Shown here one piece after another: positions 2,451 through 62,270 of a stretch of 64,000 bases of DNA (positions are counted from its first letter, which is position 1; each line of letters starts with the position of its first letter). The position numbers and the translations under genes were made by a program. The stretch lies in contig CM067298.1 of assembly GCA_034231615.1 (NCBI GenBank), forward strand, positions 34,168,127-34,232,126, read 5' to 3'. The DNA is from Meghimatium bilineatum (Eukaryota; Mollusca; Gastropoda; Stylommatophora; Philomycidae). Below the pieces are notes generated by a model. The model saw nothing but the letters and a program-made list of their open reading frames with translations, was not told the DNA's origin and searched no databases.

Positions 2451-3474
2451 GATACACTTGTTTAATATAATTACATTGTTACCTGTGTTACTGCGGTGTA
2501 TATTTGATTGTCATATATTTTTTTCCGGCTTTTTTATTACTTATATACTTCCACATATTGATTTGCTTAAGAAGTTTGTTCTCATCCATTTTAAGTACTT
2601 GCTCGATTACATTCCTGCATCTTTTTATAAAACTTAACCCACATTCGTAATGTGTTTCCCTCATACAACATACAGATATTGATTAACTACACGTTGGATA
2701 TCTATACTTATAAGCGTCTCGTATTAGTAATTTACTCTCTCACTTTCTTTATTTTAACTTATTTCTGCAAAGTATCATATCACATAGTTATTTTCATAAT
2801 TTAAATACAATTATTTTATATGTATACATACAATGTAGGACATGTAATATCTGCTGCATAATTGTGGAAAAAAGGGCTCCACGTCAGAGATCCATGGGAA
2901 TTATCGTTTGCAGCTATGAAGTTACTTGATGTGAGTGGTCATTTCTGCAAACGGTTTGACTCTTCGCTGAGACGGCTAGAGTACATATGTGGAACTTCAC
3001 TACAATTAGAGCACATTTGTACTCTCTTTTAACCATTTTTGAATGTAAACATCGCAGGCACAAAGGGAGAACATGTACGGGAGAGTGACCTTTTTTATTG
3101 CATGCGTAAGAGTGGAGTTACTGTGAGACGCTACTCTAACTTGTCCATGCTTTTCATCGTATTTTTCAGTATACTCTGTACTGCGATTAAATAAAAAGCA
3201 CTTTGAAACGTAGTATTAGCCTTAAGTAGTGACGTAAAATTGGAGTAACACTCCAAATGATATACACAGTCAAATTCCGCTATAACAACTTGATCCGGAC
3301 GCACATAATATGTATGTAATAACAGAAATTCCCTATATATAGTATATACAATACACAATCAATATAAATGATGATTTTCAACAGCGTTGTTTGTTATAAA
3401 AAGATGCGCTATAGAAGGATATGTGTTGTACAGAAAACATTATTATATGAGATGATGTATCATCTAATACAGCC
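2451..3474. other. AT-rich stretch, nothing recognised
   Basis: No tandem repeat, TE motif or long reading frame could be supported on either strand. Confidence 0.45.
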
Positions 3475-3745
3475 GACGGTTTGGTGCCGGGTCCTGAAAG
3501 GGAAGAAAGGAATATCAATGCTGTTTACCTCCCATGCATGTCGTAAAAAACAACTAAGGAGGTCTTCCGGTGGAGTTAACCACCCCATCTCATATATGTT
3601 CAAAGTGACTCAGAAACAATACTGAAGATTACTGTGTCAGGACAAAAGGCGCAAATAGTGTAGTTGAACTGTAAAACATGACGTTTTCCGATATCCAGAA
3701 TGTATCTTGTTAACCTATAGGATTCTGAGAACGCACACAAAAGAA
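3475..3745 (+). mobile_element. SINE-like repeat, diverged copy
   Basis: Aligns by eye along its length with the clean copy at 49472-49754. Shared landmarks are the GGGTCCTGAAAGGG head, CATGTCGTAAAA(A/G), AACTAAGGAGGT, then AAAGGCGCA, a GTAAA-CATGAC segment and a terminal GAGAACGC followed by AAAAGAAGAA. No clear target-site duplication is visible. Probably an old copy. Confidence 0.8.
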
Positions 3746-4470
3746 GAACATATTACAACGCAATTTAGTAACATACATTAAATGCGATACTTTTTCCCTG
3801 TTTAAATTCGAATATTAAGTGCTATTAAATCAGTCTGGAAATATGTATTTTGTTATGTATACCAAAATACTATTTCAAATATACATAAGATCAATTTTGT
3901 GTCTGTTTCTCTTGATACTAGAGACGTGGAATGTGTATTTAATCTTTACAACTGGTGAAGACTTTGGTGTGTAAGAATGGAACTGTTACTAGTAGGGTTG
4001 CTGCTAGACTATCTTTAGGCCATGTGACGCATTCACTGCGGTGTTAAACAAAAATGAGATAATTTCCACAGTAATGGAAAGAACGGCTGGTCTTTCAGCT
4101 CAAAAACGTTTATCTTTCTTAGACAACCATAAAGTAAATAAAAGCGGTAAAATTCTACGGCTTTGGGGGCATGTGAGATTGAAAAGGAAGAAAACTGAGA
4201 TTCGTTTCTCGATAGAGAAGGGCCATAACAATAGCTCTCCCTTGAGGCAACTCAAAGCTCTCAATTTCTCTCGGTAAGGAAAGCTCCTATTTCATGCAAA
4301 TTCGAGATAATTCCTGGTAGTTTTGGCCACCGAAATAACAACAGGATAGTTGTTGAATCGAATATAAAAACCGCCACGGTTTTAGCACTATATTATTTTT
4401 GCTCTGAGTTTATCTTTTCCATAACCTTTAGTGAGTACGCTTTGCAGAAAAAGTGTGGATGATAGCCATC
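3746..4470. other. Nothing firmly recognised
   Basis: GCCATGTGACGCATTC near 4018 resembles the 3' end shared by LINE fragments at 22171 and 27771, but the match is too short to call. A 78-codon frame at 4041-4277 is not recognised. Confidence 0.35.
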
Positions 4471-4689
4471 ATATTTAGTGATATGGGATGGAGTTGGCTG
4501 TCCCATCCCATATAGGGTCAGTGACCCAAAGCCATGCTGAAGTCGGATGTGTCAGGCCTAAAGGCGCAGATATCGCAGCAATGCTGTAAACCATGACACA
4601 ACGCATTCCGTTCTCCGGACTACATCCTGCCAACCTGCAGGAGTTTGAGAACGAATGCCGAAGATGCAGAAGAAGAATATTTAGTGATA
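4471..4689 (+). mobile_element. 5'-truncated SINE with perfect 13-bp target-site duplication
   Basis: The body 4484-4676 matches the 3' two-thirds of the SINE at 49472-49754, almost base for base through TCCCATCCCATATAGGGTCA and the GAGTTTGAGAACG end. It finishes in AGAAGAAGA. ATATTTAGTGATA occurs at 4471-4483 and again at 4677-4689, a perfect direct duplication. A 5' truncation, an A/G-rich tail and a duplication together indicate target-primed reverse transcription by LINE machinery in trans. Confidence 0.92.
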
Positions 4690-11609: not shown

Positions 11610-11910
11610 TAACCGACATCTTCTTCTTCTTCTTCTGCGTTCGTTCTCAAACTCCTGCAGATTAGCAGGATGTAGTCCGGAGAACGGAATGCGTTATGTC
11701 ATGGTTTACAGCAGTGTTGCGATATCTGCGCCTGTCGGCCCGACACATCCGACTTCAGCATGGCCTTGGGTCACTGACCCTATATGGAATGGGACAATCA
11801 ATCCATCCCATAACCATCCGTAGTCGTTTTTTACGACATGCGTGGAAGGTAAACAGTGTTGCTAGTCTTTGCTCCCCTTTCGGGCCCCTCAACACACGGT
11901 AGTAACCGAC
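11610..11910 (-). mobile_element. SINE, near full length, with 8-bp target-site duplication
   Basis: On the minus strand, 11902 down to 11618 matches the copy at 49472-49754 throughout. Landmarks are the GGGGCCCGAAAGGGGAGC head, CATGTCGTAAAA, CAGTGACCCAAGGCCATGC, the GGACTACATCC segment and GAGTTTGAGAACG, ending in a long AGAAGAAGAAGA tail. TAACCGAC lies on both sides (11610-11617 and 11903-11910). Few differences from the other clean copies suggest a fairly young insertion. Confidence 0.93.
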
Positions 11911-14778: not shown

Positions 14779-15807
<1,029 letters not shown>

Positions 15808-20879: not shown

Positions 20880-21050
20880 ATCAACCGCCGAATACGGATG
20901 TGTCGAGCAATTTGGCGCAAATAAAACGGATACAACACAGCATTTCATTCTCTAGACTACATCATACTAGAAATCGAGTAGGACCATTGTCCTGCTACAA
21001 GAGAGACCCAGTTGGAGTTTGAGAATGAACGCTGAAGAAGAAGAAGAATT
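20880..21050 (+). mobile_element. SINE, variant 3' domain (subfamily B)
   Basis: Shares GGCGCAAATAAAACGG, CATTCTCTAGACTACATC, GAAATCGAGTAG, TACAAGAGAGA and GAGTTTGAGAATGAACGC with the copy at 62098-62261, and ends in GAAGAAGAAGAA. Relative to the 49.5-kb type it has an extra segment of about 45 bp before GAGTTTGAGA. Flanking GAATCAATCA and GAATTAATCA may be an imperfect duplication. Confidence 0.82.
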
Positions 21051-25168: not shown

Positions 25169-25762
<594 letters not shown>

Positions 25763-25869
25763 CAATATTCGTTCAGCGCCGAATATGGTGCTTGTCTTGT
25801 CTTATACTTATCACTACGACTATGAGGTTATGATGTGTAAACACGAAAACATACAAGTTACAATATACA

Positions 25870-47470: not shown

Positions 47471-49459
47471 TCTTTGTTTGATCGAAGTTACGCATTAGAT
47501 ACTTGATAACTATACTACTTTTCTTTACTTTTTATCTTAAAAACCGCTACGTTTCTTAAGCGAGATGAGCATCTTGTTAAAAGTTAAACATATTTCTCAC
47601 ACTACGACGCAGGAGTTGCGTACATTTGAACCACATTTAATACTGAATGTCACCAATCTCAGAAGAAATGTGTCATCAATCGCAGTGTCCAAGTCTAACA
47701 GTAGAACATCAAGACATCTCATTTATTCTTCGCAAACTCATCGATTGTACGTGCCTTTGATGACATCATGTTTCCTCTCTCAAAGTATGAATCAATACTT
47801 TAAGGTACCAAAAGATAGTAGCGATTTGATTTCAATCGTGCTGTACGCATAGATACCTTATTTGACTTTTATATTTTTTCTGCCTTGATGATTGCTACAT
47901 TTTCACAAAAAATCTACGTATTTTTGAATGTATTTTCATTGTTTAATGTGTCTTAACCTCGCTCATTGTTTTTCATCCACATAATGTCAACCAACAAATA
48001 TAAATTAAATAGTAACAACCGAGATGTAATGTATGTACATATTATTTGGTGAGACGAGAAAAGAAATAATAATACTGGTAATATCAGGAACAAGTAGGCA
48101 TCATAGCTGTTATAGTGTAATCATATTACGACGCAACTTCAATACAGATTATAGCAGAGAAAAATGACGCTGAAGTCTATGGGGAAAATACCAAGAGGAG
48201 AATCTAGAAAATGTTGTATTTGTGGGGTAAACAGGAAACTAGCTCAACACCGCACACATCACAGATCATCTTCTTTCGCGTTCCCTCTCTCGTAACCAAC
48301 ATGGAGATTCGTGTGATTTCCGGCGGGGAGCAGGAAATACTGTGTGCTGGTACTTCCACAGCATATCTGTATTATTTGCACTTCGGAAGGTCCAGCAGAT
48401 TCGACGCCCAGCACACCTGTTTCTGTAATGCCTTTAATTCGGGTAGTGGGCTTCCCAAGTCTGTGATAGCCTTCCTATCTGTCGCAATTCGAAGGATGTG
48501 TGTCGATCCTACGCCGTAACGATTTTGCACCCACTGTTCCTTTTGGGCTATTCAGACCAAAACATCTCCCTGGGTGGCAGTGTCCATGGAGACGGCACTT
48601 AAGGATTTAGACTTGGGTCGACTACGCCCATCTCTCGCATGAGGTGTTCCGCTGCCAGTGGAATCGTATCGTGTAATTAGATGCATTGTGCATGTTTCTA
48701 AATGATTCTGAACATTTATCTCCGTGAGCATGATTCCGATATAGGAAATCATCGATGGTAGAGCTGGGTTCGGGTTAGTTAGCTCTCCTATCCGTGGTGT
48801 CATTCACCAACATAGTGAACCCCTACATTAAAATCGGAGTCTATGCACATGTTTTTAGTACCGGAGACTGGAACCTTATTCTTGAGCTGAACATAGTTTT
48901 AATTCATATTTCCTTTCAGCGTTTTCACGTTCCTTTTTGCACGTAGCTCTGAGCTCTTGCCCTTTGCTGCCCTCTCGATGCACACAATATGTTATATTTT
49001 TTTACTTTCACTATTCTTCTTGACTTTTACCAATTTCGCGAAAATTCCATTGACCACATCACCAATGCTCGAGCCGGACTGTTTTGCATCACTGTATGCC
49101 GACAGTGACCAAAAAATATTTTCCAGAATCTTCATGAACCGCTGTACTTATGTTTCCGGGGTACACAACGAGGACGTACTTTTGATATGTGGTTTATCTT
49201 AACGCAATGTTCGCAGAGATCGTTGCGATGTCCTTAGCACCCAAGTACAGATCAGATCTTTGTGACAAAACAATTGCTGCAATGAAGGATTAACAAAAAC
49301 AAAAAACCGGAATGATACAAATGAAACCGCATATAGTATACGAAGATAAAGCTGAGTTCAAGATATGATATTCTGTTATTATCACCTTCTTGTTATTTCT
49401 ACCATATATATTTACCCAAGATTGGTAAATGTAACTGTACAATCTAGCTTCCGATTCTC
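47471..49459. other. Unrecognised stretch with several short frames
   Basis: Frames of 81-102 codons occur at 47565-47852 (+), 48211-48519 (+), 48552-48803 (-) and 48957-49202 (+). The patch 48,200-48,800 is GC-richer and may be TE-derived, but I recognise no domain. Confidence 0.35.
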
Positions 49460-49766
49460 AATTACACAGATCGCCCGTGTGTTACCGGGGCCCGAAAGGG
49501 GAGCAAAGAATAGCAACACTGTTTACTTTCCACGCATGTCGTAAAAGGCGACTAAGGAGGTTATGGGATGGAGTTGGCTGTCCCATCCCATATAGGGTCA
49601 GTGACCCAAAGCCATGCTGAAGTCGGATGTATTAGGTCGAAAGGCGCAGATATCGCAGAAATGCTGTAAACCATGACACAACGCATTCCGTTCTCCGGAC
49701 TACATTCTGCTAATATGCAGGAGTTTGAGAACGGACTCAGAAGAAGAAGAGAAGAATTACACAGAT
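49460..49766 (+). mobile_element. Full SINE copy with perfect 12-bp target-site duplication
   Basis: AATTACACAGAT at 49460-49471 and 49755-49766 bounds a 283-bp element. The head CGCCCGTGTGTTACCGGGGC leads into a body with a TGTCGTAAAAGGCGACTAAGG segment, an inverted GGATGG...CCATCC pair and AAAGGCGCAGATATCGCAG. The end GAGTTTGAGAACGG is followed by an AGAAGAAGAGAAGA tail. I use it as the reference copy for the family here. A clear A/B box was not identified in the head, so its parent RNA is unknown. Confidence 0.95.
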
Positions 49767-51179
49767 AGTATTATTCTGTGAGATACATAACTTTGTCGAA
49801 GAAAGGTATCGCCAGATACGAGCATTAATTGGTAGTTAATAAATAAATACCATAAATCAGTAGAATCAAAAATATAAGCTGAAAATATAGGACTTGAGAT
49901 AGCACAGGGCAAATTAACGTATGAAAAGAAATAGGTGAATTAAAATGTTACCGTTCGTAAAGACAGCGCACTACAACAAAATACAATGACACAACGTTTC
50001 TACTAACAAGTCTTCATTTGGAAAATCCTGTCTGTCATTGTTATTCGCTTTCGATATTTAGTTTTTAGCGCTTAGTTGCTCTTCAATTTACCTTTTTAGT
50101 TCATTCTCACGTTACTTAATGAATGGTTTGAACTTTAACCAACTCAGAGCTGTATGAAGGTGCCCGTTGTCTTTTGATGACTAACACAATCTAACAATAT
50201 AGTAGGGTCGGATGCGTCTCCCTTCTTGAACTGTAGTTAATCTGATAAGAACACGTGACTCTCTAAATTAGATGACATATGTCACTTTGAGATTGACAAT
50301 TCCCACCCTTGCCACACAGATACGTATATAGATCAATCTATATTACATTTTATATATATATATATATACATGTCTGAGTTAACAAATTATAGTGATAATG
50401 CATCAGGTGTCGTCAGCATTAGTAATGCCATTTTGTCTCAAGATATTCAGAAATGCTAACTATCTATTCCTGTTTTCTTTTATATATGCATTAGCACATA
50501 GATGTATCTATGCATAGATGCGCTAATGCATTTGTCTTCTTGTATTTTCACAGGACATAAGCCTACATTTTTCCTGTTCACATTACCAAATCGACGACAA
50601 TGATAGCATGAACTGATGTTGACAATTGTTATGTTTAGCGTGATCTTGGCAAGTGTATGGGGTTTTTTTGTAGTTGGATGCTGTATGTAAAAATCAATAT
50701 GAAGACACTTGAAAGTTATGGATAATGTGTGTGGTTCTACATTTCTCTAGAATGTTTTTTACCAAATACCACCTTGATTCTTAGTTCTAGGTTGGGAACC
50801 AGCATCACATAACTGAGTGCATTCCCATAAACGCTACATGTCTTATTCTGCCAGAAATATAATCTCAGGGTGCCAGTTGCTGGCTTCTTCGGATCTTTAA
50901 ATAGAAGACACATTTCCTTACATATCCCGTGGTCACTACTATTTATATCATTTCCTGAACATAGGTATTGTCTATTTCACCCTCCACTGTATATCTCTTC
51001 TCATCGATGTGTCATTTAATATACCTTTACCTTCACTAGACAAACCAACCATGCAACAGAAAACCTTAGTAGATGACATGCCTTTATATTGAGGTTATCT
51101 TCTTATAGAAGCTTCATGGCACGTCATCTATACAATCCCGTAGTCGTAACCTTCAATAACAGTTACCATGTTGTTCTGA
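49767..51179. other. AT-rich stretch with a short TA microsatellite
   Basis: TA run at about 50,351-50,368. Inverted TGCATTAGC(A)CATAGATG near 50,487-50,530 forms a modest hairpin. No gene-like signal. Confidence 0.45.
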
Positions 51180-61254: not shown

Positions 61255-61905
61255 TACATAAGTTGTCACCCGTGTGTCGCCAGGCACTTAACTGGAAATA
61301 CATTGCATAATGACATTATGTTCTGTGGTGAATGTCGTAAAAGGCGACTAAAGTGGTTTTACGAAAGTATTGTTCTTCGATCCCGTAATTTATCAAAATT
61401 ATCGAAAATTTATACCGAAGTCTGATGAGCCAAACAGAAAATATATGCTAACGTCTGATATGTCAAACAGAAAATATATGCTGAAGTCTGATGAGTCAAA
61501 CAGAAAAGATATGCTGAAGTCTGATGAGTCAAACAGAAAAGATATGCTGAAGTCTGATGAGTCAAACAGAAAAAATATGTTGAAATCTGATTAGTCAAAA
61601 AAGATAAGATATGCTGAAATCTTATGAGTCAAACAGAAAAGATATGCTGAAGTCTGATGAGTCAAACAGAAAAGATATGCTGAAGTCTGATGAGTCAAAC
61701 AGAAAAGATATGCTGAAGTCTGATGAGTCAAACAGAAAAGATATGCTGAAGTCTGATGAGTCAAACAGAAAAGATATGCTGAAGTCTGATGAGTCAAACA
61801 GAAAAGATAAGCTGAAGTCTGATGAGTCAAACAGAAAGGGGAAGATATCGCAACCAATATGTAAACCCTGACACAGTGCTTTCCGTTTAACCAATTACTG
61901 ATTGT
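61255..61905 (+). mobile_element. SINE copy expanded internally by a minisatellite
   Basis: The left part (61,262-61,360) matches the SINE 5' half: CCCGTGTGTCGCCAGG and GTCGTAAAAGGCGACTAAAG. The right part (61,838-61,890) matches its 3' half: AAGATATCGCAACCAATATG, TAAACCCTGACAC and GCTTTCCG. Between them lies a 33-bp tandem array whose unit equals the SINE segment that belongs at that point. Confidence 0.85.
61425..61845. repeat. Minisatellite, 33-bp unit, ~13 copies, SINE-derived
   Basis: The unit contains GCTGAAGTCTGATGAGTCAA followed by ACAGAAAAGATAT. Most units are identical, and edge units differ. The period is a multiple of three, so 11-residue repeats appear in frames on both strands. 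They are not genes. Confidence 0.97.
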
Positions 61906-62088: not shown

Positions 62089-62270
62089 TATAATGTTTCC
62101 GCCGAAGACTGATGTGTCACGACATTGGCGCAAATAAAACGGCGACACAACGGATTTCCATTCTCTGGATTGCACCCTGCCAGAAATCAAGTAGAACCAT
62201 GGTCATTTTACAAGAGAGATTTAGTGGGAGTTTGAGAGTGAATGCCAAAAAAGAAGAAGATTATAATGTT
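62089..62270 (+). mobile_element. SINE, subfamily B 3' domain, with 9-bp duplication
   Basis: TATAATGTT at 62089-62097 and 62262-62270 bounds a 164-bp body. The body shares GGCGCAAATAAAACGG, CATTCTCTGGATTGCACC, GAAATCAAGTAGAACCATGG, TACAAGAGAGAT and GAGTTTGAGAGTGAATGCC with the 20.9-kb copy, and ends in AAAAAAGAAGAAGA. Confidence 0.88.

What the first reader, a model, noticed from the sequence alone, without database searches (positions are those of the whole stretch)
61255..61905. A minisatellite born inside a SINE
The 33-bp unit (GCTGAAGTCTGATGAGTCAA + ACAGAAAAGATAT) corresponds to the SINE interior at 4531-4568 and 49616-49655 (GCTGAAGTCGGATGT... then AGGCGCAGATAT). The flanks of the array are the SINE parts expected on each side: the TCGTAAAAGGCGACTAA head region on the left, and AGATATCGCA...TGTAAACC-TGACAC on the right. 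One SINE copy has therefore had an internal segment tandemly amplified about 13 times. It is a clear documented case of how a new satellite can start, and other copies genome-wide could carry the same nucleus.
Basis: seen in the sequence. Interest (0 to 1): 0.75.

Follow-up and report, generated by a model that had tools for sequence, protein, structure and literature searches.

The report
Minisatellite born inside a SINE-like retroposon
A short internal piece of an old mobile DNA copy was multiplied head-to-tail about 13 times, and the same piece was multiplied in other copies of that element elsewhere in this genome; this is a known way for tandem repeats to arise, seen here at several stages of growth.

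Summary
Window 61415-61837 carries a 33-bp repeat (13 units, the last running into the right flank). Its left (61266-61387) and right (61838-61887) flanks align, in order and orientation, to the head and post-nucleus part of a ~286-bp SINE-like retroposon (0 of 1000 shuffles as good on either side). In the window's own genome (1.6 Gb, unnamed) I found 11 further loci, and one dispersed composite element, with the same SINE interior in tandem: from 2 units to an array of about 9.5 kb. Periods and joints differ between loci, and in 5 of 10 tabulated loci the host copy's own two flanks account for the whole joint, so in-place, repeated birth is likely. The consensus has AAAG exactly 32 bp apart, which predicts a commonly seen joint, but not cleanly the one in this window. 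A second nucleus (36 bp, SINE tail) gave 12 loci. Against a special role: minisatellites are common here, and 4 arrays overlap SINE sequence where 7.5 are expected by length. The process is published for Alu, B1, squamate SINEs and a limpet. Verdict: real, well explained, a new member of a known kind.

The parts
61266..61387 (+). Left flank: diverged head of the host SINE copy (consensus 1-122), including TCGTAAAAGGCGACTAA
   Evidence: Local alignment 80 of 125 columns, 0 of 1000 shuffles as good
61415..61837 (+). 33-bp minisatellite, 13 units; nucleus is SINE interior, core = consensus 144-172
   Evidence: TRF, unit split
61838..61887 (+). Right flank: SINE consensus 173-222; the SINE tail beyond it is missing
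   Evidence: Local alignment 42 of 51 columns, 0 of 1000 shuffles as good
49472..49754 (+). Full-length reference copy of the SINE-like retroposon, 12-bp target-site duplication
11618..11902 (-). Full-length reference copy, 8-bp target-site duplication
4484..4676 (+). 5'-truncated reference copy, 13-bp target-site duplication
3474..3750 (+). Older copy of the same family (about 70-72% identical); no target-site duplication found

Best explanation
A SINE-like retroposon inserted here long ago. Its interior segment was later duplicated in tandem, most likely by replication slippage or unequal exchange between short direct repeats inside the element (in the family consensus AAAG stands at 138 and 170, exactly 32 bp apart). 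The doublet then grew by ordinary tandem exchange to 13 units. The same happened separately in other copies of the family. Shown: the SINE-array-SINE anatomy, recurrence at other loci, differing joints and periods, copy numbers from 2 upwards. Inferred: the molecular step, the order in time, and that AAAG was the breakpoint in this particular copy.
For: Flanks match SINE in order. Eight of 12 loci (window included) have SINE head and tail on both sides of the array by alignment. L095 is an old SINE copy with just two 32-bp units. In 5 of 10 tabulated loci the own left and own right flank account for the whole joint, overlapping by 0-11 bases (one mismatch allowed per side). L048 has the word AACTAAAAG at both points of the host copy and at each standard joint. 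AAAG spacing in consensus. Six identical units inside flanks that are only 64% and 82% like the consensus.
Against: A 4-base repeat is weak evidence by itself: AAAG occurs five times in the consensus. No second individual or species was available, so the order in time is inferred.
Confidence: 0.8

Rival explanations
1. A source SINE already had a dimeric interior (or tail), spread by retroposition, and arrays only grew from that inherited nucleus.
For: The 36-bp tail arrays share one joint position at all 12 loci, and L079 is a full-length copy with 8 units within a 12-bp target-site duplication.
Against: For the interior nucleus, periods of 23, 28, 30, 32, 33 and 35 bp and several joints exist. 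Only 5 array loci carry the exact interior joint, beside 23,849 intact interior segments; a successful dimeric source should leave many dimers.
Confidence: 0.12
2. The tandem repeat came first and the SINE captured one or more units of it.
For: Large arrays of the unit exist (C20, about 9.5 kb) and a composite element carries one.
Against: The single-unit segment is part of the family consensus built from nine copies and occurs intact 23,849 times; arrays are few and follow the variants of their host copies.
Confidence: 0.04
3. An unrelated minisatellite that lies by chance between SINE-like pieces.
For: Minisatellites are dense here, about 0.47 per kb outside SINE sequence in the sample; a doubled unit alone scores only marginally against the full consensus.
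Against: Both flanks and the unit match in order and orientation, 0 of 1000 shuffles per flank.
Confidence: 0.02

Closest known systems
SINE-derived satellites (sSats) of squamate reptiles (PMC10702118; seen: abstract, first part of Results, Discussion, passages)
   Same: Part of a SINE amplified in tandem, SINE remnants at the ends, low-copy to high-copy loci, independent origins.
   Different: Units there about 70-290 nt and mostly one extended terminal unit; both termini only in minor variants. Here units are 23-36 bp and 8 of 12 interior loci keep SINE parts on both sides.
Minisatellites from human Alu and mouse B1 (Jurka and Gentles; Bois et al.; known to me here only as cited in passages of PMC3389668 and PMC6947457)
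   Same: Minisatellite within a SINE, explained by short direct repeats in the element (Haber and Louis model).
   Different: Other SINE families, other units.
PcH-sat of the limpet Patella caerulea, from a Nin-SINE (PMC11121367; seen: first of six parts, passages)
   Same: Tandem repeat that contains a SINE segment, in a mollusc.
   Different: 179-bp monomer, about 10% of that genome, pericentromeric. Whether the present SINE is a Nin-SINE was not tested, and the host here is not identified.

Membership tests
SINE-derived tandem repeat (sSat or SINE minisatellite) | Repeat unit homologous to part of a SINE | tested here: met
   24 of 29 positions of the core; unit against consensus 130-180, 0 of 1000 shuffles as good
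SINE-derived tandem repeat (sSat or SINE minisatellite) | Array bounded by the adjoining SINE parts | tested here: met
   Both flanks; SINE tail beyond consensus 222 missing
SINE-derived tandem repeat (sSat or SINE minisatellite) | At least four tandem units (limit used in PMC10702118) | tested here: met
   13 units
SINE (host element) | Short, dispersed, non-coding copies with target-site duplications | tested here: met
   TSDs at 3 of 4 window copies tested; over 20,000 matches to each of three segments
SINE (host element) | Pol III promoter or head related to tRNA, 5S or 7SL RNA | tested here: not met
   No A- or B-box by simple pattern; no Rfam match up to E 10 at 49440-49790; hence 'SINE-like retroposon'
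Nin-SINE / MetaSINE | Conserved central domain of that superfamily | not testable with these tools
   No repeat library held; likeness of GTCGTAAAAGGCGACTAA to molluscan SINE motifs is recalled only; four sequence words gave 0 papers

The most novel reading that the evidence does not exclude
One SINE-like family contains sequence-encoded nuclei (a 32-bp interior segment bounded by AAAG repeats, and a 36-bp tail segment that folds as a hairpin) that give the same minisatellite again and again in independent copies, while an equally abundant upstream segment gave none; the genome thus holds a replicated natural series from two units to an array of several kilobases.
Probability: 0.4. Interest if true: 0.5.

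Novelty: new member of a known kind. Interest (0 to 1): 0.33.

Why it matters
Minisatellite birth is hard to study because the single-copy start is usually lost. Here the start is known: more than 20,000 intact copies of each segment, and a few loci in which a segment became tandem. That gives events and non-events from one starting sequence, so the rate and the sequence rule could be measured. It does not change the accepted picture that transposable elements seed tandem repeats.

Tried and rejected
Hairpin as a general trigger: the tail nucleus folds well (z -3.13), the interior nucleus does not (z 0.74), and the best-folding segment (upstream, z -4.30) gave no arrays. Rejected as a common cause.

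SINEs as favoured birthplaces: not supported. Sample of 170.6 kb: the window plus 38 of the 39 loci L018-L026 and L049-L078 (L065 dropped, a second copy of the L048 locus). 72 arrays outside SINE sequence, 4 overlapping it, 7.5 expected by length (P of 4 or fewer 0.13). Two of the 4 lie in one locus (L078). The loci were baited with SINE matches, so the sample is biased. Window alone: 25 minisatellites, 0.53 expected in SINE sequence, 1 seen.

Loosened joint pattern: 777 matches, the listed ones mostly single SINE copies, so the count is uninformative; it did lead to L078 and L092, L093, L095. L094 and L096 showed no array.

Rows dropped: 5 of 22 hits (L034, L035, L036, L043, L044) judged single SINE copies, 8 of 63 hits outside the 12 loci with the shared joint (4 of these, at C10:39.44, form a 39-bp array that looks related by eye but gave no SINE match, L091), L013 unrelated.

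An earlier count said that the composite element has a common left boundary. That is wrong: six of the seven copies printed share sequence further to the left and only L006 differs, so its ends are not known.

Head-segment denominator: asked, never answered. A DNA search with the reference SINE did not complete. The organism was not identified.

Full report
What is there. The array at 61415-61837 is a 33-bp minisatellite with 13 units, the last running into the right flank. Six of the 12 complete units are identical. On the left, 61266-61387 aligns to positions 1-122 of a consensus that I built from nine copies; on the right, 61838-61887 aligns to 173-222. Of 1000 dinucleotide shuffles per flank none reached the observed score. 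The unit core is consensus 144-172. So head, nucleus x13 and post-nucleus stand in the order of one SINE copy. The tail of this copy (consensus 223-286) is absent. The piece at 62099-62270 is related to another diverged piece at 20885-21048 and looks like a separate subfamily.

The host element. Copies share a 5' end, run to about 286 bp with an AGAAGA tail, and three of the four window copies tested have target-site duplications of 12, 13 and 8 bp; none was found at 3474. No tRNA, 5S or 7SL relation was seen, so 'SINE-like retroposon' is the safe name. Exact matches in the genome: interior segment 23,849, tail segment 22,858, upstream segment 20,602.

The same nucleus elsewhere. The genome search with the array, an exact joint pattern (22 hits, backward control 6; 17 hits in 5 array loci, 5 judged single copies) and loci met on the way give 11 further loci: C13:11.69 (L002), C13:21.64 (L038), C13:2.81 (L092), C25:19.49 (L015), C7:74.17 (L016), C1:118.67 (L017), C22:58.12 (L048), C21:50.50 (L095), C6:10.84 (L093), C3:22.20 (L078) and C20:59.30 (L045-L047, L087). 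Of these 12 with the window, 8 have SINE head and tail on both sides by alignment (L001, L002, L016, L017; L048; L092, L093, L095). L015 has the head by alignment and a short tail by eye. For L038, L078 and C20:59.30 SINE parts on both sides were not established. One composite element, held at 11 loci (L003-L012 and L014, five of them within C14:26.27-26.93 Mb), carries a 32-bp array of the nucleus in varying copy number. The search tools score only the best candidates, so these numbers are lower bounds.

A series of stages. L095 has two 32-bp units at 96% identity in an otherwise ordinary old copy; L093 four of 23 bp; L092 roughly nine of mixed 32 and 21 bp; the window 13; L048 17; L002 about 20; C20:59.30 about 9.5 kb with 32-, 21- and 53-bp periods and at least one interruption.

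Mechanism. The consensus carries AAAG at 138 and at 170, exactly 32 bp apart, though AAAG occurs five times in it. Slippage or unequal exchange between these two predicts a 32-bp unit with the joint AAAG-CCATGCTG. Joints of that kind, with private changes, are seen at L048, L092, L095, C20:59.30, the last units of L015 and some units of L078. In L048 the host copy has AACTAAAAG at both points. At L017 the joint instead repeats 19 bases of the host's own left flank (one mismatch allowed) and breaks at TGTC. Over 10 tabulated loci, own left plus own right account for the whole joint in 5 (overlap 0 to 11 bases) and fall short by 2 to 8 bases in 5, the window by 5. The direct-repeat model is thus supported for the family and only plausible for the copy in hand.

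Is the SINE special? A pattern meant as a control hit a second nucleus: the 36-bp tail segment, tandem with one joint position at 12 loci (55 of 63 hits, backward control 1). Eight of the 12 were read: 2 units (L098), 4 (L097, L099), 6.8 (L089), 8 (L079), 14.8 (L086), 15 (L090) and 75 (L088). L079 is a full-length copy with its array inside a 12-bp target-site duplication. Three of the 12 lie on C17 with identical joint strings and two near each other on C25, so some may be copies of one event. The upstream segment gave 2 hits against 2 for control; the head segment 5 against 7, one of which may be a SINE doublet; the segment between the nuclei 9 against 2, two of them SINE-like doublets by eye. 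With denominators, tail against upstream is p = 0.0006, interior against upstream p = 0.066 (Fisher, loci taken as independent). Segments thus seem to differ. But SINE sequence as a whole is not favoured: 4 overlapping arrays against 7.5 expected.

Comparison. Squamate SINE-derived satellites (PMC10702118: abstract, part of Results, Discussion), Alu- and B1-derived minisatellites with the short-direct-repeat model (PMC3389668 and PMC6947457: passages) and PcH-sat of a limpet (PMC11121367: first part and passages) are the same kind of event. PMC3389668 states that 23% of human minisatellites and satellites derive from transposable elements. The literature searches were made; their listings showed no report on this SINE, but the library lacks most subscription papers.

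Verdict. The finding is correct and its interpretation holds. It is a new member of a known kind, made more useful by replication within one genome.

Noticed in passing
L003-L012, L014 (C8, C14:26.27-26.93 Mb, C20, C21, C7): A dispersed composite element over 2.9 kb carries a 32-bp array of the SINE nucleus (10 to 37 units) between SINE-tail pieces in opposite orientation; copies are about 93-98% alike. Its ends and class are unknown.
   Followed up: partly
L059 (C12:384 kb), locus bases 28-1426: 47-bp x 29.8 array made of the SINE tail segment with another period than the 36-bp family.
   Followed up: no
window 20885-21048 and 62099-62270: A second SINE-related subfamily that begins near the nucleus (GCCGAAGAC...) and shares the tail region; its 5' part was not traced.
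   Followed up: no
G000 C1:7.898-7.946 Mb: Six SINE matches in one orientation spaced about 9.3-9.6 kb apart in all three segment counts, which suggests a tandem array of a roughly 9.5-kb block.
   Followed up: no
window 14814-15781 and 25172-25763: Very long tetranucleotide runs (TCTG x 242, TATC x 148) in a window that also holds 25 minisatellites.
   Followed up: no
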